In this document: positions 21,255 to 42,559 of the stretch, one piece after another | Layout of the letters: every line of letters starts with the position of its first letter | Numbering within the stretch: position 1 is the first letter of the stretch | DNA from: Devosia sp. 66-14 | Lineage (GTDB): Bacteria; Pseudomonadota; Alphaproteobacteria; Rhizobiales; Devosiaceae | Assembly: GCA_001899085.1 (NCBI GenBank) | Contig: MKVB01000006.1 | Coordinates: 144,589-208,588 of the forward strand | DNA: 64,000 nucleotides | Direction of reading: 5' to 3' | Position numbers and translations under genes: made by a program | The notes under the pieces: generated by a model | Databases searched by the model: none | Told to the model about the DNA's origin: nothing | The model's input: the letters and a program-made list of their open reading frames with translations, nothing else

Positions 21255-21287
21255 TGGGGGTGTCTCCGTAAGTAGCGGTCGGGCCGG

Positions 21288-22958: not shown

Positions 22959-22967
22959 CTCTTCACC

Positions 22968-25204: not shown

Positions 25205-25274
25205 ATCGAAAATCTCCTCCGGTCAGGTGGCAAGGGGACCAGGGCCCCCTTGCCCGGATTCCGTCAGGTCGGGA

Positions 25275-27359: not shown

Positions 27360-27521
27360 GTTTCCTCCCTAGGCTCGAGACCGGCGCAACACGCACCAGA
27401 CGGTAGGCCTCCAACCCGCCGCCTCTTGTCCCAGCCTCAAAAGGGTAGACCTTGCCAACGGCGGGACAATCCCGTTATCTGAATGGGTATTTCCGGTTTT
27501 TAAAGATTGTCACAACCTGAG

Positions 27522-29134: not shown

Positions 29135-30991
29135 TCAGAGCTCCAGCACGAACCTCGCCTCGAACCGCTCAGCCCCCCACCACATGGGAAAATTGGTGCC
29201 CCATTTGTTGTTGTGGAGGTTGAAGCGCAGGCCGGCCGAAAAGTCCGGCGGGTCGGGATTGAACGGCATGAACTTCGTCGCCGTCGGCGCGACCAGCGGA
29301 GTGTCCAGCGGCCGGAGCTCGACCCCATCGGTACGGACGGCGGCGACCGCCTGGAGCTGACCACCGCCCTTCCTGGCGATGCGGTTGGCAGCGAGCCACT
29401 GGCCCATTTTCAGGAACTGCCAGTCATGGGTGCCGGCCGGCGTGAAGGTGACGAAGCTCGCCTCGGGCATCCGGTTGGCGGGCTTGTCGAGCAGTTCGAC
29501 GGTGATCTCGAGGTGCCGGCTGTCGAGTGCCCTGAAGCGGTAGGCGATGCGTGATGGCGCCCCCAGGGCCTGGTGTGCCGCGGTGTCGAGGGTTGCCACC
29601 CCGTCCACCAGTTTTGGCGCGAAACCGGCCGAGTGCGCCGTGGCGGCACGATCGAGGCCGGGCTTGATGTGGTCGAGGATGGCCCACTCGGCGCGGTGCG
29701 TCAGGTAGGTATCCATGTGCGCCGCGACATCGGAGGCGTCATAGCTCTCGTAACGATAGCCGAGCAGGCTGCCGTTCGCGCCGTGCAGTTCGACACCGGC
29801 GGGCGAGCGAATGAGGATCACGTCGCCGCTATTGGGGTCGGTTTCGACGAACCAGCCGCTGCCTTCGATCGCCGGGTCCTCGGCCGCTTCGGCGAGGGCC
29901 CGGTCGGTCGGGTCGAGTTCGGCGACGGCGGCATCGAGATAGGCCCGCTGTTCGTCCCACGAGGCCTCGGAATACCGGAAGCGGTAGTCGGCGGCCCGCG
30001 CCGCTTCAAAAGCCGGACGGTCCCAGGCCTGGTCGTCGCGCAGGTACGACTTGATGTCGACGCCCCAGGTGTGTTCGGCGACCATGGTGAGACCACGGCC
30101 AAAGGCGAGGCGGCTCGGCGTCGGCGCCTCCTTGGCGAAGCCATCGTAGAGGCGCTGCAGATGGAGGAACCGCTTGATCTTGTCAGGGTCGGTGCCGGCG
30201 CCATGGATCCAGTTGTCGCCCAGTTCAAGGTCGACCATCGGGAATTCGGCGCGGCGGGCCCAGAGGATTTCGCCATAGGTATCGAGCGTCGAGGCGACGA
30301 TCTCGGTCCCCGGGTTATGCCCCTGCAAGTCGCGCCAGGCGTCGGCGGTCTGCGGCACGCTTTGCGGGCCCATATTGTCGTTGGTATGGGCGAAGCCGAG
30401 GCCTTCGTCGAAGCCCTCCGGGAACGAGGTTTCACCGTAGGATTTCTGATACAGCACGACGACTTCGGCGCCATCCGGTGCGCGCCAGCGGAAGACATCG
30501 GGAACATCCGGCGGCGGCGAGGCGGAATTGACGCCCAGGTGCAGGAACTTGACGCCGGCCTCGGCCAGCAGCGGCACGATGCCGATGGTGTGGCCGGGAA
30601 CGTCGGTCATCTTCGAGGCGATGGTCTGCTTGCCGAAGCGTCGGTCCAGTTCCTGGCTGTAGCTCAACCCGGCGCGAAACACGGCCGGCGACATCAGCTC
30701 GGAATGGGTGGTGAAGGGCAGCGCGTGCCAGCGGATGAGGCCGCGATCGATGGCGCGCTCGAGCCGCTGCACCCGCTCCCTGCTCTGCGAGTTGAGATGA
30801 TCCCAGATCAGCCAGGCACCGGTGGTCCAGATGAATTTCGGCCGCTCGGGATCCTCGGCGAAAAAGTGCTCGCCGGTGTCGATCGCCTGCGGGATGAAGC
30901 GCTCGTGATACTGGGCGCGGACTTTGCCGGCATGGTCGGTGAAGCCGATGTCGAGGTGGGTCTTGAAGACCAGATGGATCTTGCGGGTCAT
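29135..30991 (-). CDS. DUF5054 protein with GH38-like N-terminal catalytic motif
   Basis: The 618-residue protein belongs to the DUF5054 family. It opens with THLDIGFTD (residues 11-19), closely matching the HxDxGF/W metal site of alpha-mannosidase-like GH38 enzymes, and continues with KMTDVPGHTIGIVPLLAEAGVKFLHLGVN, ASTLDTYGEILWARRAEFPMVDLELGDNWIHGAGTDPDKIKRF and a beta-sandwich C-terminal half (~residues 390-618). There is no signal peptide, so the substrate must be imported. It is translated 8 nt after the LacI gene on the same strand, hence in the LacI operon. It is divergent from an ABC transporter plus PHP, epimerase and dehydrogenase genes. The reaction is undescribed; a retaining or inverting exo-glycosidase is the best guess. 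Confidence 0.75.
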   Translation of the reverse strand: MTRKIHLVFKTHLDIGFTDHAGKVRAQYHERFIPQAIDTGEHFFAEDPERPKFIWTTGAWLIWDHLNSQSRERVQRLERAIDRGLIRWHALPFTTHSELMSPAVFRAGLSYSQELDRRFGKQTIASKMTDVPGHTIGIVPLLAEAGVKFLHLGVNSASPPPDVPDVFRWRAPDGAEVVVLYQKSYGETSFPEGFDEGLGFAHTNDNMGPQSVPQTADAWRDLQGHNPGTEIVASTLDTYGEILWARRAEFPMVDLELGDNWIHGAGTDPDKIKRFLHLQRLYDGFAKEAPTPSRLAFGRGLTMVAEHTWGVDIKSYLRDDQAWDRPAFEAARAADYRFRYSEASWDEQRAYLDAAVAELDPTDRALAEAAEDPAIEGSGWFVETDPNSGDVILIRSPAGVELHGANGSLLGYRYESYDASDVAAHMDTYLTHRAEWAILDHIKPGLDRAATAHSAGFAPKLVDGVATLDTAAHQALGAPSRIAYRFRALDSRHLEITVELLDKPANRMPEASFVTFTPAGTHDWQFLKMGQWLAANRIARKGGGQLQAVAAVRTDGVELRPLDTPLVAPTATKFMPFNPDPPDFSAGLRFNLHNNKWGTNFPMWWGAERFEARFVLEL

Positions 30992-30999
30992 GGCTCTGA

Positions 31000-32037
31000 T
31001 CAGCCCACGGTGCCGCGGACGACCAGGCGGGTCGACACGGTTTCGGTGAGCGAGGGTGAGGTGGGGTTCTTGAGGCGGCGGAGGATCAGGCGCAGCAGCG
31101 CCTGGGTGCGTTCGGCCAGGTCGAGCTTCACGGTGGTCAGGCTGTAGCTCTTCCAGTGCGACTGGTGGATGTCGTCGAAGCCGACGACCTTGACGTCCTG
31201 CGGTACGCGCAGGCCGAGTTCGGTGCGCAGCGCATCGATGGCGCCGAACGCGCCGACATCGTTGGCGGCAAAGATGGCGTCCACCGGCTCGCCGAGGCGG
31301 AACTGGTTCAGCGTCTCGCGATAGGCCGTGTCGTACATGTAGTCGCCCTGGATGCGGAGCGGCGGCGGCAGTCCGCGCTCGGCAATCACCTTGCGCACCA
31401 TACGCTCGCGCGACTGGGTGGCGAGCGAGTTGCTCTTGCCGGCGAGAAAGGCGAAGCGGCGGGCCCCATATCCCTGCATCAGCGCCACGGCCTGCTCGAT
31501 GCCCTCGCGCTGCAACACGTCGAGACGGTCGAACAGCGGCGCCGCCTCCGCCTCGGCTGCCTCCTCGTCGGGGTAGCCGATATAGATCGGCACAGCGCGA
31601 TCGAGCACGCGGGCAAGCGTGGTGGGGCGCACGTTCTCGGCATAGGCGATCACCGAATCCGGATTGAACCCCTTCATGTAGGTGAGCAGCGTTTCATCAA
31701 GCGACAGGTCATCGCGGGTCCGGAACAGCAGCGTCGCAAAACCCTCCGCCTGCAACGCGGTGGTCATGGCGTCGAGCTCCTGGCTTTCCCACGGCCCGGA
31801 AACATCGGGCACGATGATGCCGACGAGGTGCGAGCGGCCGGTGACCATCGAGCGGGCAGCCATATCCGGGGTGTAGTTGAGTTCCTGCGCCACCTTCAGG
31901 ATCAGGTCGCGCTTTTCGGGTTTGATCGAGGCATGCGGGTTGAAGGCACGGCTGACCGCAACGCGCGAAACGTTGGCGGTGCGGGCCACCATATCGGCGG
32001 TGGCGCGGCTGCGATTGCGGGTGGCCGGATCGCTCAA
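31000..32037 (-). CDS. LacI-family transcriptional repressor
   Basis: The 345-residue regulator has an N-terminal LacI helix-turn-helix (ADMVARTANVSRVAVSRAFNPHASIKPEKRDLILKVAQELNYTPDMAARSMVTGRS, residues ~14-70) and a periplasmic-binding-protein-like effector domain (LVGIIVPDVSGPWESQELDAMTTALQAEGFATLLF ... VDAIFAANDVGAFGAIDALRTELGLRVPQDVKVVGFDDI). The frame opens at a TTG (32037); the only ATG near the start would cut the first helix, so TTG is likely. It is cotranscribed with the DUF5054 gene and divergent from the sugar transporter operon. Its operator is most likely the palindrome at 32246-32265. Confidence 0.9.
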   Translation of the reverse strand: MSDPATRNRSRATADMVARTANVSRVAVSRAFNPHASIKPEKRDLILKVAQELNYTPDMAARSMVTGRSHLVGIIVPDVSGPWESQELDAMTTALQAEGFATLLFRTRDDLSLDETLLTYMKGFNPDSVIAYAENVRPTTLARVLDRAVPIYIGYPDEEAAEAEAAPLFDRLDVLQREGIEQAVALMQGYGARRFAFLAGKSNSLATQSRERMVRKVIAERGLPPPLRIQGDYMYDTAYRETLNQFRLGEPVDAIFAANDVGAFGAIDALRTELGLRVPQDVKVVGFDDIHQSHWKSYSLTTVKLDLAERTQALLRLILRRLKNPTSPSLTETVSTRLVVRGTVG

Positions 32038-32177
32038 AAAGGTCTGCCTTGCTGCCCTAGATTGAAATCGTGTGCAAAACTGTTCTGCCGGTTCGCTTCG
32101 GGCGGTGTCAAGCCGATCCGTCGCTCGAACAGGCTAAACCACTGATGTTGCGAAACAATGACTGACGGCGAGGAGAA

Positions 32178-32193
32178 TAGAACAAACGTTCTA
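32178..32193. promoter_or_regulatory. Palindrome TAGAAC-AAAC-GTTCTA
   Basis: This 16-bp inverted repeat with perfect 6-bp arms sits in the middle of the LacI divergent region, 53 bp upstream of the second palindrome centre-side. It could be a second operator (LacI or another regulator). Confidence 0.5.
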
Positions 32194-32245
32194 CACACTC
32201 GTCATATCGCTGTCATTCGCAACGGGCATTCTACGCCTTGACGAT

Positions 32246-32265
32246 GAATGAAAGCGTGTTCATTC
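32246..32265. promoter_or_regulatory. Probable LacI operator
   Basis: GAATGAA-AGCGTG-TTCATTC is a 20-bp perfect-armed palindrome with a CG step exactly at its centre, the hallmark of LacI-family operators. It overlaps the spacer and -10 of the predicted promoter for the transporter operon, a position fit for repression. Confidence 0.65.
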
Positions 32266-32356
32266 TGAGCTCGTGAGCTGCGGCGGGGAGGATTGACCGT
32301 CGCTATCGCCAATTCGGCGCCCCAAAAAGCGGCGCCACCAAGGGAGGAATTTCGCG

Positions 32357-33718
32357 ATGAGCAATCGCCTGCGCGCCCTGTATCTCGGGCTTGCAACTGC
32401 CACTACCATGATCACGCCCGCCTTCGCGGTCGACCTGACGGTAATCTGCCGCTGCGTCGTGGGCGGCGTGAACAGCGAGACGGCCACCTGGATCAAGGAA
32501 AGCGTGATCCCGGGCTTCACCGCGGCCATGAAGGCCGAGGGCAAGGACGTCACCGTGTCGCTGAACGAGTTCGGCGGCAAGGACGAGCAGATGACCCAGC
32601 AGCTGGCGCTCGATTTCTCGACCGGCGCCGGCGCCGATGTCGCGGCCTTCGACGGCTTCCTGATCCCCTCTTTCGTCGAAGGCGGGCTGTTGAAGCCGCT
32701 CGACGAAGTGGCGGGCCCGGCGGTGGACAGCTGGGAAGGCTGGAAACACATCTCGGACGGCGCCAAGTCGCTGATGAGCTACGGTGGCAAGGCCTACGGC
32801 CTGGCGCTCGGCACCGACGTGCGCGCCATCTTCGTGCGCAAGGAACTGCTGAAGTCGGCGGGCCTCGACCCCGACAGCTTCCAGCCCAAGTCGTGGGCCG
32901 AGCTGCTCGATGCGGCCCGCGCCATCAAGAAGGCAAACCCGGATTCGTTCCCGCTGCAGCTCAATGCCGGCGTGAACATGGGTGAAGCCACCACCATGCA
33001 GGGCTACTACATGGCGATCCTCGGGACGGGCGAAAGCGTCGTCGACGAGAACGGCAAGTATATCGTTTCGAGCCAGGGCATCCTCGATACCCTCAACCTC
33101 TACAAGACCATCTATGTGGACGAGCAACTGGGCGACCAGCGAGCACAGCTCCTCGGCGATGGCCGAAACCGCACCTTCACCAACTTCCGCGACGGCAAGA
33201 CGGCGCTGCTCGTCGAGGGTGACTGGTTCTTCAACTCGGTGATGGCGCCGGGCGCCGAATTCGGGCTCGATAACCGCGACGCGGAAGTCACCTGGGCCTC
33301 GATGCCGGCGCAGGAGCCGGGCAAGGGCTATCGCGGGCAGGACTATGTGACGGTTTCGGGCGGCACGGGCTTCGTGCTCAACCCCGCCACCAAGAACCCG
33401 GCCGAAGCCTGGGCGCTCCTGAGCTACATGAACAGCCAGCAGTCGCTGACCGCGTTCCAGGGCTATCGTGAGGCCCGCCGCATCCGCGACGACGTGGCGA
33501 CGCCGAACAATGTCTACCTGCAGAAGACGCAGGAGAGCCTGCTGCCGCTGACCACCGCGCGCCCGAACGACCCCAACTACAACAAGGTCTCCGCCGAAAT
33601 TCAGCGCATGACCGAAAGCGTGGTCTCGGGCGAAGCCAGCCCGGCAGACGCGATGGCCGCCTACAAGGCGGCGGTGATTGCCATCGTCGGCGAAGCCAAC
33701 ACGGTATCGAAGCTCTAG
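32357..33718 (+). CDS. Sugar ABC transporter substrate-binding protein (SBP_bac_1)
   Basis: The 453-residue protein has a signal peptide (cleavage after AFA, ~residue 24) and the SBP_bac_1 fold of carbohydrate-binding proteins (STGAGADVAAFDGFLIPSFVEGGLLKPLDEVAG, NPATKNPAEAWALLSYMNSQQSLTAFQGYREARRIRDDVATPN). The mature N-terminus has an unusual two-Cys cluster (VICRCVVGGV). A strong terminator follows at 33771-33818, with the permease genes downstream, so the binding protein is probably made in excess. As first gene under the LacI-controlled promoter, it determines the sugar taken up, which cannot be read from sequence. Confidence 0.88.
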   Translation: MSNRLRALYLGLATATTMITPAFAVDLTVICRCVVGGVNSETATWIKESVIPGFTAAMKAEGKDVTVSLNEFGGKDEQMTQQLALDFSTGAGADVAAFDGFLIPSFVEGGLLKPLDEVAGPAVDSWEGWKHISDGAKSLMSYGGKAYGLALGTDVRAIFVRKELLKSAGLDPDSFQPKSWAELLDAARAIKKANPDSFPLQLNAGVNMGEATTMQGYYMAILGTGESVVDENGKYIVSSQGILDTLNLYKTIYVDEQLGDQRAQLLGDGRNRTFTNFRDGKTALLVEGDWFFNSVMAPGAEFGLDNRDAEVTWASMPAQEPGKGYRGQDYVTVSGGTGFVLNPATKNPAEAWALLSYMNSQQSLTAFQGYREARRIRDDVATPNNVYLQKTQESLLPLTTARPNDPNYNKVSAEIQRMTESVVSGEASPADAMAAYKAAVIAIVGEANTVSKL

Positions 33719-33770
33719 CTTCGCAACATGTCCTCCCACGCCCGGCCCTCCCTGAGCCGGGCGCTCCCTG

Positions 33771-33818
33771 GGAACGCCTCCCCGGCACCCTGCCTGCGGC
33801 CGGGGAGGTTCCTTTTTT
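33771..33818 (+). terminator. Terminator/attenuator after the binding-protein gene
   Basis: CCTCCCCGGC (33777-33786) pairs with GCCGGGGAGG (33799-33808), extended by GGAA/TTCC, and is followed by CCTTTTTT. It lies 58 nt after the stop and 118 nt before the next gene of the same operon, so partial termination there would favour excess binding protein. Confidence 0.85.
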
Positions 33819-33860
33819 CGGTTGGGGTTTGTCACATTGCTTGAAGAAATGAAGCCGCAG

Positions 33861-33910
33861 GCAGACGGCCCCCTCCCATCCTCCCCCACAAGGGGGGAGG
33901 TGCCGTCTGC
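33861..33910. repeat. Palindromic repeat, copy 1 (42-bp unit, left of transport cassette)
   Basis: GCAGACGG (33861-33868) and CCGTCTGC (33903-33910) enclose a C-rich/G-rich stem (CCTCCCCC-ACAA-GGGGGGAGG). The 42 bp from 33861 match the reverse complement of 36889-36930 at 41 of 42 positions by my count. Confidence 0.85.
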
Positions 33911-33931
33911 TTCAGTCAGGAGCAGCGAGGC

Positions 33932-34849
33932 ATGAAAAAGAAGAACTTCTCGCTCCTGTCGCACCGTGCCGGCGCGGCGTTCCTGGCCCCTGCGGCGGCG
34001 CTGGTCGGCGTCTTCGTGCTGCTGCCGTTCTTCTGGGTGATCGTCGTTTCGTTCACCAACCGGACGCTGCTCGGCAAGACCGCGCTCAACCCGGAATTTG
34101 TCGGGCTCGCGAACTACTTCCAGCTGTTCGACCCGGCGACCTTCTTCACCCGCGGGCAGTTCGGCTTTTCGCTGATCCTCACCACGCAGTTCGTGCTGCT
34201 GTCGGCGCTGGTCGGGCAGGCGCTGCTCGGGCTGCTGCTGGCCTGGCTGATGCAGACCATCCCCCCTGCCCTCAAGCGGATCGTCGAGACTGCGGTGATT
34301 GCAGCCTGGATCCTGCCCGAAGTGGTGATCGGCTTCGCCTGGTTCGCCTTCCTCGACTACGACAACGGCACGCTGAACATGATCCTCAGGGGACTCGGTC
34401 TGCCGGCGGGAGATTTCCTGCTGCAGCAGCCGTTCTGGGTGATCGTGATCTTCAACACCTGGCGCGGCGCAGCGTTCTCGATGATGCTGTTCAACTCGGC
34501 CTTCGCCTCGATCCCGCCGAGCTATTTCCAGGCGGCGGACGTGGCGGGCGCCTCGAGCTGGCAGAAGTTCCGCGATATCGGGCTGCCGCTGATCCGCGGG
34601 CACGTGGTCACCGACCTGATCCTCAGCACCATGTGGACGTTCAACGTGTTCACGCCGTTCATCCTGACCAATGGCGGGCCGAGCTACCGCACGGAACTGC
34701 TGTCGATCTACAATTACCGCATCGCCTTCCGGGAGTTCGACTTCGGCAAGGGCGCGGCGGTGGGGGTGATCATCATGCTGATCAACCTGGTGTTCGCGCT
34801 GATCTACCTGTCGTTCGGACGCAAGAAAGCCAAGGCGGTGGAAGAATGA
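33932..34849 (+). CDS. Sugar ABC transporter permease 1
   Basis: The 305-residue MalF/UgpA-type permease has six predicted helices (first: AAFLAPAAALVGVFVLLPFFWVIVVSFTN) and the conserved EAA loop (SAFASIPPSYFQAADVAGASSWQKFRDIGLPLIRGHVV). It overlaps the next permease gene by ATGA. GAGG precedes the ATG. It works with the binding protein at 32357 and the ATPase at 35676. Confidence 0.9.
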   Translation: MKKKNFSLLSHRAGAAFLAPAAALVGVFVLLPFFWVIVVSFTNRTLLGKTALNPEFVGLANYFQLFDPATFFTRGQFGFSLILTTQFVLLSALVGQALLGLLLAWLMQTIPPALKRIVETAVIAAWILPEVVIGFAWFAFLDYDNGTLNMILRGLGLPAGDFLLQQPFWVIVIFNTWRGAAFSMMLFNSAFASIPPSYFQAADVAGASSWQKFRDIGLPLIRGHVVTDLILSTMWTFNVFTPFILTNGGPSYRTELLSIYNYRIAFREFDFGKGAAVGVIIMLINLVFALIYLSFGRKKAKAVEE

Positions 34850-35676
34850 GGCTGAGCTTTCCGCAACTGCTCGCCCGCATCGGCTTTTCGGCGCTGGCCG
34901 CCATCATCGGCATCCTGTTCGCGCTGCCGCTGATCTGGTTCATCTTCGCGCCGTTCAACGCGCGGGCCGAGCTTGGCATCGCCATTCCCGACCCGTGGAC
35001 GCTGCAGAATTTCGTGACGGTGTTCGGCAACGGCTTTGCCATGCGCGGGCTGCTCAACAGCCTGATCCAGAGCGTCGGCGGGGTGATCCTCGTCGCCGCG
35101 GCGGCGACGCTCGCAGCCTATGCGCTGTCCCGCTCGTCGATTCCCGGCAAGGGGATGATCACCTATGTGCTGCTGCTGTTCTCTTCGGTGGTGTCGGGCA
35201 CGGCGGCAATGGTGCCGATCTTCCTGATCGTCTCGTCGGTCGGGCTGATGGACACCCATATCGCGGTGATCCTGGTGTTCGCCGGCGGGCTGTTGCCCAC
35301 CGCGATGTTCATCCTCCGCGACTTCATCGACGGCATTCCCAAAACCTACGAGGAAAGCGCCATGGTCGCCGGCGCCTCGCCGGTACAGGCGTTCTTCGAC
35401 GTGGCACTGCCGGTGATCCGGCCGGGCATCGTGGTCGTGGTGGTGTGGGCGTTCGTCAACATCTGGGGCTCGTTCCTGATCCCCTTCATCCTGCTCCGCT
35501 CCGATGACCTGATGCCGTCGTCGGTGGCCATCTACTCGTTCTACTCGGAGGCGGGGACGCCGATCGTGACGCTGCTCGCAGCCTACTCGCTGATCTACTC
35601 CCTGCCCGTCGTCGCCCTCTATCTCTTCGTCAGCTGGAAGTTCGGCTTCCGCTTCTTCGGTGGAATCAAAGCGTAA
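34846..35676 (+). CDS. Sugar ABC transporter permease 2
   Basis: The 276-residue MalG/UgpE-type permease (IGFSALAAIIGILFALPLIWFIFAPFNARAELG) has six predicted helices and the EAA loop (GIPKTYEESAMVAGASPVQAFFDVALPVIRPGIVVV). It starts within the ATGA overlap with permease 1 and its stop overlaps the ATPase start by one base (TAATG), indicating tight translational coupling. Confidence 0.9.
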   Translation: MRLSFPQLLARIGFSALAAIIGILFALPLIWFIFAPFNARAELGIAIPDPWTLQNFVTVFGNGFAMRGLLNSLIQSVGGVILVAAAATLAAYALSRSSIPGKGMITYVLLLFSSVVSGTAAMVPIFLIVSSVGLMDTHIAVILVFAGGLLPTAMFILRDFIDGIPKTYEESAMVAGASPVQAFFDVALPVIRPGIVVVVVWAFVNIWGSFLIPFILLRSDDLMPSSVAIYSFYSEAGTPIVTLLAAYSLIYSLPVVALYLFVSWKFGFRFFGGIKA

Positions 35677-36788
35677 TGGCCTCGGTCGAATTCCAGAACG
35701 TCACCAAGAGTTTCGGCACCTTCAACGCCGTCTCGGACATCAGCTTCAAGGTCGCGGACGGCGAGTTCATCTGCCTCCTCGGCCCGTCGGGCTGCGGCAA
35801 GACCACCAGCCTGAGGATGATCGCCGGGCTCGAAACCCCGACATCGGGCAAGATCATGATCGGGCCAGATGACGTGACGCACCTGCACCCCAAGGATCGG
35901 CAGATCTCGATGGTGTTCCAGGACTATGCGCTCTACCCGCACATGAACCTCGCCGACAATATCGCCTACCCGCTCAAGGTGCGGGGCGAGAGCGTCGAGA
36001 AGCGCCACAAGCGGGCCAAGGAAGTGGCCGACGTGCTGAAGATCGGCGAGTTGCTGAACCGGCTGCCGAGCCAGATCTCGGGCGGGCAGCAGCAGCGCAC
36101 CTCGCTGGCGCGAGCGCTGGTCTATCCGAGCCGGGTCTACCTGTTCGACGAGCCGCTCTCCAACCTCGACGCCAAGCTGCGGCTCGAGGCGCGTGGCTTC
36201 CTCAACCACCTGCAGCGCGACATGGGGATGACGGCGGTCTACGTGACGCACGACCAGGCGGAAGCCATGGCGCTGGCCACCCGGATCGCGGTGATGGATC
36301 GCGGCCGGATCGTGCAGTTCGCCCCACCGATCGAGATCTACCGCCGGCCCGCGACGACCTTCGTTGCGAACTTCGTCGGCAACCCGCCGATGAACATGAT
36401 TCCCGTCGAAGGCACAGTGGAGGGCGAGCGGCTGCAACTGCGCGCCCATGGCGTGCTGGTGCGGGACCTGCCGATCTCCTCGGGGATCAAGGCGGCCCTC
36501 GGCAAGGGCGCCGGGCTGACGCTGGGGGTGCGGCCCGAGCACCTCAGCATGGGCACCATCAACGACGTCAACATGGTCAGCGGCAAGCTGTTCGCCAACG
36601 AGAACATGGGCCCGGAAAAGCTCGTGACCTTCGAGCGCCAGGACGGCGGCCGGGTGACGGCGCGGATCTTCACCGACGACGCGGTGGAGACGACGGAGAA
36701 TGTGGCGTTCACCTTCGACGGCGCGCACGCGACGCTGTTCGACTCTGAGGGCAAGCGGATTCCGGCGGATGGGGAGATGCCGCTGTGA
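35676..36788 (+). CDS. Sugar ABC transporter ATP-binding protein (UgpC/MsmK type)
   Basis: The 370-residue protein has Walker A GPSGCGKTT (~residue 37-45), Q-loop VFQDYALYPHMNL, signature ISGGQQQR, Walker B VYLFDEPLSNLD, the His-switch TH, and a C-terminal TOBE/OB-fold regulatory region (~residues 235-370). The start overlaps the permease stop by one base. It energises the importer encoded just upstream. The C-terminal extension allows regulation by inducer-exclusion-like contacts, as in UgpC/MalK, but no partner is visible. Confidence 0.9.
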   Translation: MASVEFQNVTKSFGTFNAVSDISFKVADGEFICLLGPSGCGKTTSLRMIAGLETPTSGKIMIGPDDVTHLHPKDRQISMVFQDYALYPHMNLADNIAYPLKVRGESVEKRHKRAKEVADVLKIGELLNRLPSQISGGQQQRTSLARALVYPSRVYLFDEPLSNLDAKLRLEARGFLNHLQRDMGMTAVYVTHDQAEAMALATRIAVMDRGRIVQFAPPIEIYRRPATTFVANFVGNPPMNMIPVEGTVEGERLQLRAHGVLVRDLPISSGIKAALGKGAGLTLGVRPEHLSMGTINDVNMVSGKLFANENMGPEKLVTFERQDGGRVTARIFTDDAVETTENVAFTFDGAHATLFDSEGKRIPADGEMPL

Positions 36789-36803
36789 GGGTGCTGACTG
36801 AGA

Positions 36804-36930
36804 CGGAAGGCCCCCTCCCGGCCTCCCCCATGAAGGGGGAGGTGAAGAGTCGAGGCTGTGGCTCGATCGTGCCAGACACTGGATGCAGCACCTCCCCCCT
36901 TGTGGGGGAGGATGGGAGGGGGCCGTCCGC
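36804..36930. repeat. Double copy of the palindromic repeat (copies 2 and 3, inverted)
   Basis: A first unit (CGGAAGGCCCCCTCCCGGCC..., 36804-36843) and a second, opposite unit (36889-36930) form one long inverted repeat about 127 bp across. The second unit is the near-identical inverted copy of that at 33861. The array fills the gap between the ATPase and PHP genes. Confidence 0.85.
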
Positions 36931-36948
36931 TGATGGCTTCGCTCCGAC

Positions 36949-38370
36949 ATGACCCAGCTCGTAAGGGTCAATGTCACCCGCGCCGACCAGGCGAAGAACC
37001 CCTATTTCTATATCCCCGTCACCGTCCCCGAGGGCACGACGCGGATCGATGTGACGCTGGCCTATCCCAAGGCTGATGACTGCGTGATCGACCTCGGGAT
37101 GTTCGACCCTGCCATGACCGCCTACCCGTCCGAGGGCGGGTTCCGGGGCTGGTCCGGCGGGTTCCGCGATCGCTTCCATGTCGCCACCGACAGCGCCACG
37201 CCGGGCTATGTGCACGGGCCGATGCCGGCAGGCGAATGGAACGTCATCCTCGGGCTCTACAAGGTGCCGGCCGATGGTGCTGAAGTGACGGTGACCGTCG
37301 ATCTCGACAGCAGTGAGCGCCCGACCAACCCGCAACCGGAACGGACCTTCCCGGTACGCGCCGGCGCCGGGTGGTATCGGGGCGACCTCCACTGCCATAC
37401 CTTCCATTCCGATGCGGCCGGCTCCCCCGAGACGCTGCACAAGGCGGCGGTGCAGGCCGGGCTCGATTTCCTCGCCATCGCCGACCACAACACCATCACG
37501 CAGCGGCGCTATTTCCATCCGGCCTCGTCGCCGGACCTGGTGTTCGTGCGCGGAATGGAGGTGACCACCGCCGTCGGGCACGCCAATGTCTACGGGGTCG
37601 ACGAGTGGATCGACTTCCGCATGACCAAGCCGTCGGATGCGCATGTGCTGGCGGAGATGGTGCATCGCAAGGGCGGCCTCCTGTCGATCAACCACGACAA
37701 GCCGACCATCCCCTGGGACTACGAGTTCCCGGCGGCCGATTGTCAGGAGGTCTGGCAATCGACCTGGATGGCCTGGAACTGGGTGTCGCTGGCGCGCTGG
37801 CAGGAACGGCTGGCCTCGGGCTTGCGGATCTCAGCCATAGGCGGCAGCGATTTCCACCAGCCGGCGAAGCTGCAGCCGGAGGGGCCGCTGGTGCTGGCGC
37901 GACCGACCACGGTGCTGTGGCTGCCGGAGCTGAGTGAGGACGCCGTCCTCGCGGCAATGAAGGCCGGTCGAGGCTATGTCACGGAGGGGCCCAAGGGCCC
38001 GCATCTTGAGATCGGCATCGGCGATGCGCCGATGGGCTCGGCGGTGCAGCGCAAGCCGCTGCTCAGGGCCCGCGCCAGGGTGCGCAGTGCAAGGGGCGAC
38101 CTGCTGCACTGGATCGACGCTTCCGGTGTGGTTGGTGAGCAGGAAATCCTCTCCGGCGACTGGGAGGGCGAGATCGCGCTGCTCGAGGGCACACAGGGCT
38201 TCATCCGCGCCGAGATCGTCGCCAAGGCCAGCCGGCCGTGGCTGGTGGAGGAATTCACCAAGGCGGCGAGCGAGCGCGGCGAACTGCCGTGGCAACTCAA
38301 GGGCTCGCACCTCGTGGACGAGCCGATCCGGCGCGCCATTTCCAACCCAATCTACATCGATCAGGACTAG
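36949..38370 (+). CDS. CehA/McbA-type PHP-domain metallohydrolase
   Basis: The 473-residue protein has an N-terminal beta-sandwich-like region (~1-135) and a PHP domain with all expected metal ligands: GDLHCHTFHSD (146-155), IADHNT (177-182), GMEVTT (202-207) with GHANVYG (210-216), INHDKP (247-252) and GGSDFHQ (298-304). The overall layout matches the CehA/McbA group of PHP proteins. Some act as phosphoesterases, others on carbamate or sugar-related substrates. It has no signal peptide. It is the first of three catabolic genes following the transporter genes (160 nt gap filled by a repeat). The exact reaction is unknown. Confidence 0.82.
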   Translation: MTQLVRVNVTRADQAKNPYFYIPVTVPEGTTRIDVTLAYPKADDCVIDLGMFDPAMTAYPSEGGFRGWSGGFRDRFHVATDSATPGYVHGPMPAGEWNVILGLYKVPADGAEVTVTVDLDSSERPTNPQPERTFPVRAGAGWYRGDLHCHTFHSDAAGSPETLHKAAVQAGLDFLAIADHNTITQRRYFHPASSPDLVFVRGMEVTTAVGHANVYGVDEWIDFRMTKPSDAHVLAEMVHRKGGLLSINHDKPTIPWDYEFPAADCQEVWQSTWMAWNWVSLARWQERLASGLRISAIGGSDFHQPAKLQPEGPLVLARPTTVLWLPELSEDAVLAAMKAGRGYVTEGPKGPHLEIGIGDAPMGSAVQRKPLLRARARVRSARGDLLHWIDASGVVGEQEILSGDWEGEIALLEGTQGFIRAEIVAKASRPWLVEEFTKAASERGELPWQLKGSHLVDEPIRRAISNPIYIDQD

Positions 38371-38373
38371 CTC

Positions 38374-39225
38374 ATGTTTATCGGCAATGCCCCGTGTTCC
38401 TGGGGCATCAACTATCCCACCGGCAATGCCTATACGTGGCAGGAATACCTCGATCAGGTGGCCGCTTCGGGCTATCGCGGCACCGAACTCGGACCGTTCG
38501 GCTTCCTGCCCAAGGACAAGGCGGTGCTGGGGCCCGAGCTCGAGAGGCGCGGGCTGACGCTGATCGGCGCGACGCATGTGCACACTTTCGGCGACCGGGC
38601 TTCGGCGCCGCTGCTCATGGCGACGCTGCGTGAGCTGGCGCCACTGCTCAAGGATCTCGGCGCCAGACACCTCGTCATCATGGACGAAAGCAACTGGTAC
38701 CCCGAGGGGCAGGAAGGCGTGCTCGACCGCGACGGCTGGAACGGGCTTACCGCCACGGTGCGCGAAGCGCAGGCAGTGATCGAAGGCGAGTTCGGGCTGA
38801 AGGCCAGCTTCCATCCGCATATCGGCACAGCCGTGGAGTTCGAGCGGCAGATCGACCGGTTGCTCGAGGAAACCGAGATCGACCTCTGCTTCGACACCGG
38901 ACACCACGCCTTCTGGGGCCAGGACCCCCTCGCCTACATGGAGAAGGTGTGGGGGCGGATCGCCTACATGCATTTGAAGAATGTCGATGCGGCGGTGCGC
39001 CAGCTGGTGCTCGACGGCAAGCTCTCGGTGGCGGCGTCTTATGGGGCCGGGGTGATGGCGCCCCTGCCCGATGGCGCCGTCGATATCCAGGCGGTGATGC
39101 GCTTCCTCGACGCCAGGGGTTTTGATGGCCCGATCGTCGTCGAACAGGATATTGCCGAGAACGCGGCAGAGACGCCGCTGCAGCTGGCCAAGCGCAACTA
39201 CGTGTACATGCAGGCGATCGCGTGA
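38374..39225 (+). CDS. Sugar phosphate isomerase/epimerase-like TIM-barrel protein
   Basis: The 283-residue protein is an AP-endonuclease-2-like (xylose-isomerase-like) TIM barrel: GYRGTELGPFGFLPKD, LVIMDES, ASFHPHIGTAVEFERQIDRLLEETEIDLCFDTGHHAFWGQDPLAYMEKVWGRIAYMHLKNV. The E, H, D and H metal ligands are recognisable (the E of LVIMDES; HPHIGT; CFDTGHHAF; HLKNVD). Relatives include inosose dehydratase (IolE) and 3-keto-sugar isomerases or epimerases. It follows the PHP gene by 3 nt and overlaps the dehydrogenase gene, so the three are translated together. Role in the pathway: probably keto-sugar dehydration or epimerisation. Confidence 0.82.
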   Translation: MFIGNAPCSWGINYPTGNAYTWQEYLDQVAASGYRGTELGPFGFLPKDKAVLGPELERRGLTLIGATHVHTFGDRASAPLLMATLRELAPLLKDLGARHLVIMDESNWYPEGQEGVLDRDGWNGLTATVREAQAVIEGEFGLKASFHPHIGTAVEFERQIDRLLEETEIDLCFDTGHHAFWGQDPLAYMEKVWGRIAYMHLKNVDAAVRQLVLDGKLSVAASYGAGVMAPLPDGAVDIQAVMRFLDARGFDGPIVVEQDIAENAAETPLQLAKRNYVYMQAIA

Positions 39226-40295
39226 TGGCAAAGCTCAGAGTTGGCCTGATCGGCCTTGGTGAAGTTGCGCAGTTGATGCACCTGCCGCTGCTGGCTGACG
39301 ACCCGCGCTTCGAGATCGCGGCGGTGACCGATGTGTCGCCCAGTCTCGTGGCGCATGTGGCGGAGCGCTACGGGGTGAAGAACCGGCATGCAACGGCGGA
39401 GGCGCTGATCGCCGATCCGACGATCGACGCGGTGTTCATCCTGACGCCGGATTTCCTCCATGCGCCGCTGCTCGAAAAATCCATCCGCGCCGGCAAGCAT
39501 GTGTTCATCGAGAAGCCGGCGGCGCTCACGGCCGCCGAGCTGAAGCCGCTGCTGGAGCTCGAGAGGACCAACCCCAGGACGGTGTTCGTCGGCTATATGC
39601 GGCGGTTCGCGCCGGCCTTCACGGCGCTCAAGCAGAGGTTGCCGCCGCGCGAGGAGATCCGGCATGTGCGGATCCGCGACCTGATCCGTGAAAGCCAGTT
39701 CTTCGTCGACCAATCGCGCAACATCTTCCGCCCGACCGACGTGCCGGCCGAAGCGATCGCCGATGGCCGGACGCAGACCCAGGCGCTGTTGAAATCGGTG
39801 ATGGGCGAGGCGCGGCCGGACCAGTTGCGCGCCTACCAGGTGCTGACAGGACTTTCCTCGCACAGCTTTTCTGCGATGCGCGAACTTTTCGGCGCACCGC
39901 ACGCTGTTGCCGCGGCGCGACAGCATCGCGGCGAGAACGTGCTCGTCATGTTCGACTATGGCACGTTCACGGCGCTCTACGAGGCGGTGATCCACGATGT
40001 CGCGCGCTTCGATGCCGGCATCGAAGTGCTGACGTTGAACCAGCATTTCAAGATCAACTACGACACCCCGTATGTGCGGAACCTGCCGACCCGGCTGGAG
40101 ATCACCACCTCCGATCTCCACTCGACCGGCACCGAGATCATCGGGCCATTCTACGAGGATGCTTTCCGAGTCGAACTGGGTGCGTTCCACCATGCTGTGA
40201 CGACTGGAGAAAAGCCCAAGACGTTGCTGACGGACTCTCTCGCCGACCTCGAACTGTTCGCCGAAGTCGGACGGCATTTCTTGTCGCAAAACTGA
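39225..40295 (+). CDS. Gfo/Idh/MocA-family dehydrogenase
   Basis: The ATG at 39225 overlaps the upstream stop (TGATG); a GTG one codon earlier is also possible. The 356-residue protein has the Rossmann GLIGLGEVAQLMHLP (~residues 7-21), VFIEKPAA (~91-98) and a C-terminal substrate domain (GYMRRFAPAFTALKQ; DVARFDAGIEVLTLNQHFKINYDTPYVRNLPTRLE). It oxidises or reduces a sugar, inositol or keto-glycoside. Linked with the epimerase, a keto-sugar route (for example 3-keto-glycoside) is plausible. It is the last gene of the operon, followed by a hairpin. Confidence 0.85.
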   Translation: MAKLRVGLIGLGEVAQLMHLPLLADDPRFEIAAVTDVSPSLVAHVAERYGVKNRHATAEALIADPTIDAVFILTPDFLHAPLLEKSIRAGKHVFIEKPAALTAAELKPLLELERTNPRTVFVGYMRRFAPAFTALKQRLPPREEIRHVRIRDLIRESQFFVDQSRNIFRPTDVPAEAIADGRTQTQALLKSVMGEARPDQLRAYQVLTGLSSHSFSAMRELFGAPHAVAAARQHRGENVLVMFDYGTFTALYEAVIHDVARFDAGIEVLTLNQHFKINYDTPYVRNLPTRLEITTSDLHSTGTEIIGPFYEDAFRVELGAFHHAVTTGEKPKTLLTDSLADLELFAEVGRHFLSQN

Positions 40296-40537: not shown

Positions 40538-41686
40538 ATGAAACGTCGTGCGTTTATGCTTTCGGTCGGTGGCGCTGCCGCCGGCATGGTGCTGCTGCCG
40601 CGGATGGCTTTCGCCGAAGCCGGCAAGATCGACTGGTACACCAGCTCGGACCAGAACATCCTCGACTTCTGGACCAACGTGGTGAAGCCGAAGTTCGAGG
40701 CCGCCAATGCGGGTGTCACCCTCAACCTCGTCGACGGCGGCGACTCGGCCGGCGTGCAGGCCATTGCCGAACGCGCCGTGGCCGCGATGCAGACCAACAC
40801 CGACCCGCAGGCCGACATGGCCGAAGGCTTTGACACGCGGCTGCCCAAGGGCGGCATCGAGGCCGGTCTCTGGGTCGATTTCAGCAAGGCCAACCTCTCG
40901 AACTATTCGAAGATCAACCCGCTGGCGTTCGACGTTCCGACCAGCCTGCCCTACCGCGGCAGCCAGGTGCTGCTCGCCTACGACACCACCAAGCTCGCGG
41001 CGGCCGACGCGCCCAAGACCTGGGAAGCCCTCGTCGCCTGGATCAAGGCGAACCCCGGCCAGTTCGTCTATAACCGCCCCGACAAGGGTGGCTCGGGTGG
41101 CAACTTCGTGCGCCGCGCCATCTGGGAGGCGAACGGCAAGGATCCCAGCAAGTTCACCGTCGACAACTTCGGTGCGTTCGGCGCCGAAGCGTTGCCGCCG
41201 GCCTGGGCAATGCTCAAGGACCTGGCGCCGTCGCTGATGGACAAGGGCGCTTACACCTCGGGCAACACCCAGTCGATCCAGCTGCTGTCGCAGGGCGCGG
41301 TCACCATGATCCCGGCCTGGTCCGACCAGGCGCTGCAGGCGATCTCGACGGGCGTGCTGCCCGAAACCACCGGCCTCGTGCAGCTCACCGACCTGGCGCT
41401 GGCGGGCGGCTTCACCAAGATCGGCGTGTTCAGCAACGGCGTGAACAAGGATGCAGCGCTGAAGCTGGCGGATTTCGTGCTGAGCGAGGAAATCCAGTCG
41501 GCGGTGATCACTGAGCTCGGCGGCTTCCCCGGCGTGTCGTGGGACAATGTGAGCAAGGAGCTCCGCGAGAAGTACGCCGACGTCATTCCCGCCACCATCC
41601 CGGTCTTTCCGGGCGGCGAATGGGAAAAGGCGATCAACGACGGCTGGTACCGCGAAGTCGCGCCGAACGTGGACCGCGCTGCGTGA
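40538..41686 (+). CDS. ABC transporter substrate-binding protein (PotD/FbpA-like) with Tat-like signal
   Basis: The ATG at 40538 (GGGAGA upstream) gives 382 residues. The N-terminus MKRRAFMLSVGGAAAGMVLLPRMAFA has a twin-Arg RRAFML pattern before the hydrophobic core, suggesting Tat export. The mature protein begins KIDWYTSSDQNILDFWTNVVKPKFEAANAGVTLNLVDGGDSAGVQAI and resembles SBP_bac_6/PotD binding proteins that bind ferric ions, spermidine, 2-aminoethylphosphonate or sugar phosphates (AfuA). Here it is followed by two permeases, an ATPase and a glycerophosphodiesterase. A phosphorylated organic substrate is therefore more likely than iron; this is inference. Confidence 0.8.
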   Translation: MKRRAFMLSVGGAAAGMVLLPRMAFAEAGKIDWYTSSDQNILDFWTNVVKPKFEAANAGVTLNLVDGGDSAGVQAIAERAVAAMQTNTDPQADMAEGFDTRLPKGGIEAGLWVDFSKANLSNYSKINPLAFDVPTSLPYRGSQVLLAYDTTKLAAADAPKTWEALVAWIKANPGQFVYNRPDKGGSGGNFVRRAIWEANGKDPSKFTVDNFGAFGAEALPPAWAMLKDLAPSLMDKGAYTSGNTQSIQLLSQGAVTMIPAWSDQALQAISTGVLPETTGLVQLTDLALAGGFTKIGVFSNGVNKDAALKLADFVLSEEIQSAVITELGGFPGVSWDNVSKELREKYADVIPATIPVFPGGEWEKAINDGWYREVAPNVDRAA

Positions 41687-42558
41687 GCCTGACGCCTGCA
41701 ACCGACATTGTCGGAACCAAAAAGAGCGGGAGGCCGATCGGCCTCCTGCTCGTCGCCGCTCCGGTTCTGCTGGTCGCCTGGATGATCATCTGGCCGATCA
41801 TTTCGGCCATCGGACGCACCATCTGGCTGCCCGATGAGGGCGGCACCGAGAGCTTCTCGCTCGAGACCTACAGGTTCTTTTTCACCGACCAGTACAGCCT
41901 CAACAATCTGAGCGTGACGCTGTGGACGACAGGCGTCTGCGCCCTGCTGCTGGTGCTGATCTGCCTGCCGATCGCGCTCTACCTGCGTTTCGCAAAAGGC
42001 CGCCTCGCCGCCTATGTGCAGGGCCTCGCGATCTTTCCGATGTTCGTTCCCTCGATCATCCTGAGCTATGCGGTCATCCGCGTCCTCGGCCCCAATGGCA
42101 CGGTGGACCTCCTGCTCAATTCGGTCGGACTGCCGCATATCCGCTCGCCCTACCTGACGCCGTGGGGCCCGGTGATCGGACTGGTGTGGGACAATATCCC
42201 GCTCACCGTGCTGATCCTCCTGTCGGGGCTGGGCAATGTCTCCAACCAATCGATCGAGGCAGCACGCGATGTCGGCGCCGGGCGGCTGGCGCTGCTCTGG
42301 CACATCATCCTGCCGCGCATTTCCAATTCGATCCTCGTGGCGGTGAGCTTCACCGTGCTCGGGATTTTCTCCGCCTTCACCCTGCCCTACGTGCTGGGCC
42401 CGGCCGCGCCGGAAATGATGGGGCCGTTCATGCAACGCACCTTCCGCGACCTGAACGATCCGACCAGCGCCATCACCCAGGCGGTGATCACCTTCTGCTT
42501 CTGCATCGTGTTCGGACTGTTCTACGTCCGCTCCGTCGCCAAGAACCGGACGACGTAA
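41683..42558 (+). CDS. ABC transporter permease 1 (ferric/spermidine type)
   Basis: The GTG at 41683 overlaps the SBP stop (GTGA), which fixes the start. The 291-residue product has six membrane helices (first: GLLLVAAPVLLVAWMIIWPIISAIGRTIW) and an EAA loop (SIEAARDVGAGRLALLWHIILPRISNSILVAV) typical of the PotB/FbpB permeases. A second permease starts 2 nt after its stop. Confidence 0.88.
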   Translation: MSLTPATDIVGTKKSGRPIGLLLVAAPVLLVAWMIIWPIISAIGRTIWLPDEGGTESFSLETYRFFFTDQYSLNNLSVTLWTTGVCALLLVLICLPIALYLRFAKGRLAAYVQGLAIFPMFVPSIILSYAVIRVLGPNGTVDLLLNSVGLPHIRSPYLTPWGPVIGLVWDNIPLTVLILLSGLGNVSNQSIEAARDVGAGRLALLWHIILPRISNSILVAVSFTVLGIFSAFTLPYVLGPAAPEMMGPFMQRTFRDLNDPTSAITQAVITFCFCIVFGLFYVRSVAKNRTT

Positions 42559-42559
42559 G

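What the first reader, a model, noticed from the sequence alone, without database searches (positions are those of the whole stretch)
29135..40295. Undescribed LacI-controlled sugar-use locus: DUF5054 GH38-like enzyme, ABC importer, PHP metallohydrolase, epimerase, Gfo/Idh dehydrogenase
Two divergent operons share one control region. One holds LacI and a cytosolic DUF5054 protein with a GH38-like HLDIGFTD motif. The other holds a sugar ABC importer, a CehA/McbA PHP hydrolase, a TIM-barrel epimerase/dehydratase and a Gfo/Idh dehydrogenase. I know of no described pathway with this set. The combination suggests intracellular cleavage of an imported oligosaccharide or glycoside, with a keto-sugar step (dehydrogenase plus epimerase) and a metallohydrolase step.
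Basis: partly seen in the sequence, partly recalled or inferred. Interest (0 to 1): 0.72.

Follow-up and report, generated by a model that had tools for sequence, protein, structure and literature searches.

The report
Likely inositol-glycan feeding operon with DUF5054
A soil bacterium carries a tightly controlled gene set that probably imports the sugar-inositol-phosphate head groups of membrane lipids and breaks them down for food, a diet for which we found no description.

Summary
TGAACACGHTTTCA, the likely LacI operator, occurs in 52 of 53 LacI-SBP gaps.

DUF5054 has a GH38 alpha-mannosidase-like predicted fold with intact zinc-site residues, but is below the GH38 Pfam cut-off. The "keto-sugar/epimerase" pair looks like myo-inositol enzymes: in Rudaea the operon sits beside iolG-iolC-iolD-iolB, no canonical iolE was found, and the locus TIM barrel is the only good substitute. 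PHP relatives lie beside phosphoinositide phospholipase C, GH38 or GH92 alpha-mannosidases and GDPD; one genome joins PI-PLC, PHP, three GH92 and the iol pathway. In the window the run continues into a second ABC importer with a GDPD.

Best reading: LacI-controlled uptake and breakdown of glycosylated (probably mannosylated) phosphoinositol head groups. Every enzymatic step is inferred. Against it: 21 of 80 DUF5054 loci show none of the partners, PHP was not found in 10 of 16 genomes chosen mostly for lacking it beside DUF5054, no neighbourhood null was computed, and no substrate was tested.

The parts
29135..30991 (-). DUF5054 protein (618 aa, no signal peptide visible): predicted GH38-like zinc glycosidase; candidate Zn ligands/nucleophile H12, D14, D130, H307 and candidate acid/base D205
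   Evidence: PF16477 100.4 bits; GH38N 20.7 bits, below the 25 cut-off; these residues invariant in 26 of 26; AlphaFold pLDDT 86.8, pTM 0.90; Foldseek ranks 1-24 all alpha-mannosidases of GH38 type, E down to 2e-19, TMq 0.47-0.63
31000..32037 (-). LacI-family regulator
   Evidence: PF00356 and Peripla_BP_3 over cut-off; present in 48 of 71 related loci
32063..32076 (.). second, degenerate LacI-operator-like site TGCACACGATTTCA near the lacI start
   Evidence: 38 of 53 gaps have two full matches, one near each gene (recounted)
32249..32262 (.). LacI-operator-like palindrome TGAACACGCTTTCA 94 bp before the SBP gene
   Evidence: motif in 52 of 53 LacI-SBP gaps (window included) against a mean of 0.16 in mononucleotide shuffles; the pattern TGAAMRCGYKTTCA matches at one place in the own genome
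32357..33718 (+). extracellular solute-binding protein of the CUT1-type sugar importer
   Evidence: PF01547 E 3e-31
33932..34849 (+). ABC permease 1
   Evidence: PF00528
34846..35676 (+). ABC permease 2 (start read from the sequence)
   Evidence: PF00528
35676..36788 (+). MalK/UgpC-type ATPase
   Evidence: ABC_tran E 2e-32; UgpC model 386 bits, below its 432 cut-off
36949..38370 (+). CehA/McbA-family PHP metallohydrolase with N-terminal beta domain; predicted phosphoinositol phosphoesterase
   Evidence: NF038032 275 bits; H148, H150, H180, E204, H249, D301 and H303 invariant in 27 of 27; nearest folds are uncharacterised predicted phosphoesterases 3e38 and 2anu; relatives beside PI-PLC, GH38, GH92 and GDPD
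38374..39225 (+). IolE-like TIM barrel, predicted inosose dehydratase variant
   Evidence: TIGR04379 138.8 bits, below the 290 cut-off; the only PDB sequences matched at E <= 1e-3 are two IolE proteins; only good IolE candidate found in Rudaea
39222..40295 (+). Gfo/Idh oxidoreductase, IolG-like N-terminal part, unusual C-terminal part
   Evidence: TIGR04380 105.9 bits, below the 355 cut-off, over residues 4-140; alignment with canonical IolG
40538..41686 (+). second ABC importer: solute-binding protein (start read from the sequence)
   Evidence: SBP_bac_8; found with the locus in 6 of 80 related loci
41683..43381 (+). second ABC importer: two permeases (first start approximate)
   Evidence: ORFs; same order in L077, L132, L133
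43391..44428 (+). second ABC importer: ATPase (PhnT2/PotA-like, below cut-offs)
44434..45267 (+). glycerophosphodiester phosphodiesterase (GDPD), starting 6 bases after the ATPase
   Evidence: PF03009 E 1.5e-14; conserved in L077, L132, L133
45457..46293 (-). inositol-monophosphatase-family gene, convergent neighbour, possible partner
   Evidence: PF00459 E 8e-52; NCBIfam inositol-1-monophosphatase 137 bits, below 332, HisN close behind at 131; conserved at this place in L077, L132, L133

Best explanation
The locus is a LacI-controlled system for importing and degrading a glycosylated phosphoinositol, i.e. the head group of an inositol lipid (fungal mannosyl-inositol-phosphoceramide, plant GIPC, or bacterial phosphatidylinositol mannoside), down to myo-inositol. 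Proposed steps, all inferred: (1) a lipase of the bacterium or of another organism frees the head group (PI-PLC in Rudaea; none found in the Devosia and rhizobial genomes searched). (2) The CUT1 ABC transporter imports the glycosyl-inositol (phosphate); in Devosia a second ABC with GDPD may take the glycerophospho form. (3) In the cytosol DUF5054, a GH38-like zinc enzyme, removes the sugar, most likely alpha-mannose. (4) The PHP enzyme removes phosphate or opens a (cyclic) phosphodiester. (5) Gfo/Idh and the IolE-like TIM barrel oxidise and dehydrate inositol or an isomer and feed the iol pathway, encoded elsewhere in this genome. The LacI sites are supported by sequence conservation; the enzyme functions rest on predicted fold, conserved residues and gene neighbourhood.
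For: Rudaea L089 and the related MAG L095 carry Gfo-TIM-ATPase-permeases-SBP/DUF5054 beside iolC, iolD, iolB, with iolG and an RpiR-like regulator (read, not scanned) next to them. Rudaea's iolG/C/D/B exceed their NCBIfam cut-offs, but the best IolE-like hit in either genome is the locus TIM barrel (141 and 135 bits; next best 63). TIM matches only IolE among solved sequences and keeps E155, E157, D174, H200, E257 shared with canonical IolE. A TonB receptor-PI-PLC-PHP cluster (PHP with a signal-like N-terminus) occurs in Rudaea, G560 and 5 of 20 further PI-PLC windows. In G707 it lies on one contig in one run with iolC-D-E-B-A, GH92 alpha-mannosidases (two in the run, a third nearby), an RpiR-like gene and iolG. 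PHP is paired with a true GH38 in Martelella and G202 (inside the DUF5054 operon) and in Chelativorans (apart from it), and lies convergent to a permease-permease-GDPD-ATPase operon in D. pacifica. In the window GDPD follows in the same run, conserved in 3 of 3 relatives for which I had DNA that far. DUF5054 model: Foldseek ranks 1-24 are alpha-mannosidases. The own genome has an iol cluster on another contig.
Against: 21 of 80 DUF5054 loci, mostly Rhizobium, show none of the window-type partners, and PHP was not found at E <= 1e-30 in 10 of 16 genomes, most of them chosen because it was missing beside DUF5054; of the 6 with a match, three are only 32-40% alike. So PHP is not obligatory. TIM and Gfo are present in only 25 and 24 of 71 loci. 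In G560 the PI-PLC cluster lies on another contig than DUF5054, so the Rudaea adjacency is one case of two, and 15 of 20 further PI-PLC windows have no PHP relative. PI-PLC was not found in the window genome or the other Devosia/rhizobia searched. IolE and IolG models are far below cut-off, and the best solved match of Gfo is an aldose-aldose oxidoreductase. IolB co-occurs in 11 of 11 DUF5054 genomes against 106 of 297 overall (Fisher p 8e-6), but 3 of 4 genomes of the same family without DUF5054 have it too. A 36%-identical DUF5054 in Phocaeicola sits in a glycoside-hydrolase cluster with no inositol gene among the proteins scanned. No neighbourhood null was computed. No activity was tested.
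Confidence: 0.58

Rival explanations
1. Same theme, other sugar: the substrate is a plant GIPC head group (Man-GlcA-Ins-P). Separate GH38/GH92 enzymes remove mannose, and DUF5054 cleaves the bond between the next sugar (GlcA or GlcN) and inositol.
For: A true GH38 is encoded beside PHP in the DUF5054 operons of Martelella and G202, so mannose has its own enzyme there. Man-GlcA-Ino-P is released from plant GIPC by Botrytis (PMC11496612, passages). The Phocaeicola DUF5054 lies with GH35, GH2, GH3, GH43, GH95 and GH120 and no obvious mannose target. A PIG-L-family gene lies near the D. limi locus.
Against: GH38-fold enzymes of known activity are alpha-mannosidases (recalled); I noticed no uronate genes in the locus but made no search for them.
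Confidence: 0.17
2. Oxidation-elimination route: Gfo oxidises C3 of an imported glycoside and the TIM barrel beta-eliminates the aglycone, as in DgpA/DgpBC or levoglucosan breakdown, with DUF5054 as a side hydrolase.
For: Gfo's solved relatives include DgpA (E 3e-16) close behind inositol 2-dehydrogenase (E 1e-17) and the best, an aldose-aldose oxidoreductase (E 8e-18); the chemistry is known (PMC10628242 and PMC7676230, search listing only; the TIM-barrel nature of those partners is recalled).
Against: The TIM barrel hits only IolE among solved sequences at E <= 1e-3; in Rudaea and L095 the pair lies beside iolC/D/B with no other good iolE.
Confidence: 0.1
3. A general alpha-mannoside uptake operon; the inositol-type genes and PI-PLC are accidental neighbours.
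For: TIM/Gfo are missing in about two thirds of the 71 loci; the Rudaea PI-PLC adjacency is not kept in G560; PHP pairs with GH38 in three genomes; no neighbourhood null was computed.
Against: Inositol, phosphodiester and mannosidase genes recur around PHP and DUF5054 in different genomes.
Confidence: 0.1

Closest known systems
GH38 alpha-mannosidases (e.g. Bl_Man38A-C, S. pyogenes GH38)
   Same: Predicted fold (Foldseek E 2e-19); the H-x-D motif and D130 align with the HIDVAW and PDTFGYS motifs of GH38 (weak score).
   Different: 618 aa against 833-1180 aa in the listed chains; GH38N below the Pfam cut-off; no GH38C or middle-domain hit; 7-12% identity in the Foldseek alignments; activity unknown.
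myo-inositol iol pathway
   Same: IolE-like TIM barrel and IolG-like N-terminal part; operon beside iolC/D/B in Rudaea and L095.
   Different: Both enzymes are far below the equivalog cut-offs; canonical iol genes are elsewhere in the own genome; CUT1 transporter, LacI regulator, GH38-like enzyme and PHP added.
CehA/McbA-family PHP hydrolases
   Same: NF038032 275 bits; invariant PHP-type metal residues.
   Different: The carbaryl hydrolase that gives the family its name (recalled) acts on a carbamate ester; here relatives lie beside PI-PLC, alpha-mannosidases and GDPD.
Bacterial C/O-glycoside beta-elimination systems (DgpA/DgpBC, OGE, levoglucosan pathway)
   Same: Gfo/Idh dehydrogenase with a second enzyme acting on the keto product.
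   Different: The TIM barrel here matches IolE; GH38-like enzyme and PHP present; iol linkage in Rudaea and L095.

Membership tests
DUF5054 (PF16477) | over Pfam gathering score | tested here: met
   100.4 against 37.6 bits
GH38 | GH38N over Pfam gathering score | tested here: not met
   20.7 against 25 bits
GH38 | GH38C and alpha-mannosidase middle domains | tested here: not met
   no such hit at E <= 0.01; present in the true GH38s of L117, L120, L183
GH38 | zinc ligands and nucleophile (H-x-D, D, H; positions recalled) | tested here: met
   H12, D14, D130, H307 invariant in 26 of 26; the first three aligned with GH38 by hhalign (E 0.003, probability only 10%); H307 placed by conservation and order only
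GH38 | fold | tested here: met
   predicted model; Foldseek ranks 1-24 alpha-mannosidases of GH38 type, TMq 0.47-0.63
GH38 | alpha-mannosidase activity | not testable with these tools
   needs enzyme assay
CehA/McbA PHP | NF038032 over cut-off and intact PHP-type metal residues | tested here: met
   275 against 80 bits; alignment A3
IolE (inosose dehydratase) | TIGR04379 over equivalog cut-off | tested here: not met
   138.8 against 290 bits
IolE (inosose dehydratase) | conserved metal-site residues of the TIM barrel | tested here: met
   E155, E157, D174, H200, E257 shared with canonical IolE of the own genome in a 4-sequence alignment; which of these are the ligands is recalled
IolG (inositol 2-dehydrogenase) | TIGR04380 over equivalog cut-off | tested here: not met
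   105.9 against 355 bits, residues 4-140 only
LacI family | LacI HTH and ligand domain over cut-off; palindromic operator nearby | tested here: met
   binding itself not testable here

The most novel reading that the evidence does not exclude
Plant- and soil-associated bacteria have a dedicated, LacI-regulated pathway that imports the glycosyl-inositol-phosphate head groups of eukaryotic sphingolipids (fungal MIPC, plant GIPC) or bacterial PIMs. In it DUF5054 is a new GH38-like family that cuts the sugar-inositol bond, and the PHP/CehA clade is a phosphoinositol phosphoesterase. Some gammaproteobacteria run an outer-membrane version of the same diet with PI-PLC, GH92 and a TonB receptor.
Probability: 0.4. 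Interest if true: 0.8.

Novelty: new variant of a known kind. Interest (0 to 1): 0.62.

Why it matters
[quoted passage not shown] Testing three or four purified proteins could give a first function to DUF5054, a new substrate class to CehA/McbA PHP enzymes, and a reason why rhizobia and Devosia keep this operon. It would also link membrane-lipid turnover in soil and roots to inositol catabolism.

Tried and rejected
Scans of viral contigs returned no DUF5054 or PHP relative. phmmer and a profile against PDB sequences found nothing for DUF5054. Samples of the class (1 of 385, profile A1) and the phylum (1 of 299, PF16477) hit only the own genome, so it is rare in those samples; Rudaea is the only hit in 250 genomes of its order. 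IolB co-occurrence was considered as proof and set aside because it is confounded by clade. The other side of the window (GH4 alpha-galactosidase with a dipeptide-type ABC and AraC, 19.9-28.4 kb) was considered as part of the unit and rejected: GH4 was found beside the locus only in L024, L026 and L027 of 97 loci compared, several of them cut short. Bosea-like L018/L020 carry DUF5054 beside an aldo/keto reductase and another ABC without PHP or LacI; unexplained. One search returned the best 80 of 473 relatives; the rest were not seen. Of the 22 PI-PLC places, 19 were fetched (left out: Rudaea's own and two partial matches), plus the one alphaproteobacterial place. Mononucleotide shuffles were the control for the operator count, dinucleotide shuffles. 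The promoter/terminator scan gave nothing above shuffles. Paper listings were capped: 15 of 371, 15 of 14,988, 15 of 17, 10 of 24, 10 of 106; searches returned none. RpiR-like genes and the TonB-receptor-like ORFs of L161/L168 were named by reading, not scanned.

Full report
WHAT IS THERE. The window lies in a 5.7-Mb genome, probably of Devosia: its DUF5054 is 92% identical to that of Devosia sp. Root413D1. Divergent from a 319-bp gap run lacI-DUF5054 on the minus strand and SBP-permease-permease-ATPase-PHP-TIM-Gfo on the plus strand. The plus-strand run does not stop at 40295: a second ABC importer and a GDPD follow to 45267, with GDPD starting 6 bases after the ATPase, and then a convergent inositol-monophosphatase-family gene.

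CONSERVATION. DUF5054 was found in 11 of 297 genomes of the order, own genome included; in samples of the class (1 of 385) and the phylum (1 of 299) only the own genome was hit. The genome collection gave 473 relatives, of which the best 80 were returned. Of the 71 of these with at least 9.7 kb of 5' DNA, 48 have LacI, 47 SBP, 47 ATPase, 46 PHP, 25 TIM and 24 Gfo (identity limits 50-60%). Of all 80, 21 show none of the partners; most are Rhizobium genomes in which DUF5054 stands near an acyl-homoserine-lactone synthase gene (cluster 9, 17 loci; annotated in L118). In L022/L093, L023, L041 and L085 the transporter is exchanged while LacI, PHP and DUF5054 remain, and in L040 only PHP and DUF5054 are left, divergent.

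CONTROL REGION. In 53 comparable LacI-SBP gaps (window included) TGAACACGHTTTCA occurs in 52. All TGAA-N6-TTCA sites number 90: TGAACACGTTTTCA 49, TGAACACGCTTTCA 25, TGAACACGATTTCA 13, TGAAAGCGATTTCA 3; mononucleotide shuffles give 0.16 gaps with a site on average. 38 of 53 gaps have two sites, one near each gene. The window has an exact site at 32249-32262 and a one-mismatch site at 32063-32076, and no other in 64 kb. The pattern TGAAMRCGYKTTCA matches at one place in the own genome. LacI is therefore very probably a local regulator of both units; binding itself is not shown.

DUF5054. No paper in the library holds the word DUF5054 and no PDB sequence matches. H12, D14, D130, D205 and H307 are invariant in 26 of 26 aligned relatives. 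Profile comparison with two GH38s aligns KTHLDIGFT with HTHIDVAWL and KMTDVPGH with LPDTFGYS, E 0.003 but probability only 10%. The AlphaFold model (pLDDT 86.8, pTM 0.90) has alpha-mannosidases of GH38 type as Foldseek ranks 1-24, TMq 0.47-0.63, 7-12% identity; the second structural aligner was not available. GH38N stays below its cut-off and GH38C is not detected. I call it GH38-like, not GH38. That D205 is the acid/base and H307 the fourth ligand is inference.

WHY INOSITOL. The TIM barrel matches IolE best (138.8 bits, cut-off 290; PDB 9zmu and 3cny). In Rudaea cellulosilytica (L089) and a related MAG (L095) the same Gfo-TIM-ATPase-permeases-SBP/DUF5054 set lies beside iolC, iolD and iolB, with iolG and an RpiR-like gene next to these. 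The four Rudaea iol enzymes (G, C, D, B) exceed their NCBIfam cut-offs; the best IolE-like hit in either genome is the locus TIM barrel (141 and 135 bits), the next best being 63. The simplest reading is that the locus TIM barrel is their inosose dehydratase. The own genome has canonical iolB, iolE, iolD, iolC and iolG together on another contig (iolE, iolB and iolG over cut-off; iolC and iolD read, not scanned). The Gfo protein resembles IolG only in its N-terminal part, and its best solved match is an aldose-aldose oxidoreductase, closely followed by inositol 2-dehydrogenase and DgpA; it may act on another isomer or on a glycoside.

WHY PHOSPHO AND WHY MANNOSE. In Rudaea a TonB receptor, a PI-PLC (PF16670, E 8e-119) and a PHP of the same two-domain type with a signal-like N-terminus follow DUF5054. 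In G560, the genome of L095, the same receptor-PI-PLC-PHP cluster exists but on another contig. PI-PLC occurs in 19 of 200 genomes of Rudaea's order and 1 of 210 alphaproteobacteria; of 20 windows fetched around it, 5 have receptor-PI-PLC-PHP and 15 have no PHP relative. One of the five, G707, has in a single run iolC-D-E-B-A, GH92, receptor, PI-PLC, PHP (NF038032, 274 bits), PfkB, GH92, an RpiR-like gene and iolG, with a third GH92 nearby. Independent of PI-PLC, PHP stands beside a true GH38 alpha-mannosidase in the DUF5054 operons of Martelella and G202 and, apart from DUF5054, in Chelativorans, and convergent to a permease-permease-GDPD-ATPase operon in Devosia pacifica. GH38 is a minority companion: of 94 loci searched with the Martelella GH38 only L117, L102 and L014 had a match. 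In the window itself GDPD belongs to the downstream run, and this is kept in 3 of 3 relatives for which I had DNA that far: L077, L132, L133. No neighbourhood null was computed, so these are counts, not probabilities.

AGAINST. PHP was sought genome-wide in 16 genomes, most of them chosen because their DUF5054 locus lacks it; 10 of 16 have none at E <= 1e-30, and three of the six matches are only 32-40% alike. PI-PLC was found in 3 of 16 genomes, none of them Devosia or rhizobia, one match being partial, so there the head group would have to be freed by another enzyme or organism. IolB accompanies DUF5054 in 11 of 11 genomes against 106 of 297 overall (p 8e-6), but in the same family 3 of 4 genomes without DUF5054 also have it. 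A Phocaeicola DUF5054 (36% identity, signal-like N-terminus) lies with GH35, GH2, GH3, GLAA-B, GH43, GH95 and GH120, pointing to other specificities in the family.

WHAT IS KNOWN. Man-GlcA-Ino-P and related inositol phosphate glycans are released from plant GIPC during Botrytis infection (PMC11496612, passages read). Mannosyl-inositol has been isolated from yeast (PMC11907402, passages). A survey of bacterial inositol use (PMC9430895) has none of the terms glycosid-, PHP, mannosid- or galactinol (term search; start of abstract in listing). Searches for a bacterial route gave no hit or capped listings in which I saw none; subscription journals and preprints are not covered.

VERDICT. Most likely it is a LacI-controlled pathway for glycosylated phosphoinositol head groups (0.58), a new variant of sugar-utilisation operons with an unstudied GH38-like enzyme at its core.

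Noticed in passing
window 19887-28448: GH4 alpha-galactosidase (NF011657 678 bits, cut-off 486) with a dipeptide-type ABC importer and a MelR-like AraC regulator (182 bits, below its 253 cut-off): a second sugar locus directly beside the finding.
   Followed up: partly
window 18933-19796: APH(6)-like aminoglycoside/hydroxyurea kinase family gene, Pfam over cut-off but the NCBIfam resistance models listed all below cut-off.
   Followed up: no
window 14479-16020: Tryptophan-halogenase-family protein (PF04820 E 9e-106).
   Followed up: no
L032-L039, L118: In Rhizobium genomes DUF5054 stands near an acyl-homoserine-lactone synthase/LuxR pair (annotated in L118); an operator-like site TGAACACGTCTTCA lies before it in L032 although no LacI relative is on the fetched DNA.
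   Followed up: partly
L182, L171, L181 (G707, overlapping stretches of one contig): iolCDEBA-GH92-TonB receptor-PI-PLC-PHP-PfkB-GH92-RpiR-like-iolG run, itself a likely inositol-lipid utilisation locus.
   Followed up: yes
L116:11951-36559: Phocaeicola plasmid cluster with a DUF5054 (36% identity, signal-like N-terminus) among GH35, GH2, GH3, GLAA-B, GH43, GH95 and GH120.
   Followed up: partly
L133:10947-13334: PIG-L (GlcNAc-PI de-N-acetylase family) protein of 795 aa close to the GDPD/inositol-monophosphatase end of the Devosia limi locus.
   Followed up: no
L018, L020: Two genomes (one named Bosea as L094) with DUF5054 beside an aldo/keto reductase and a different ABC importer, no LacI or PHP relative nearby.
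   Followed up: no
L168:5152-12392: PI-PLC with a TonB-receptor-like ORF, a GH76-family protein (alpha-mannanase family, recalled) and a histidine acid phosphatase: another mannose-plus-phosphoinositide neighbourhood.
   Followed up: no
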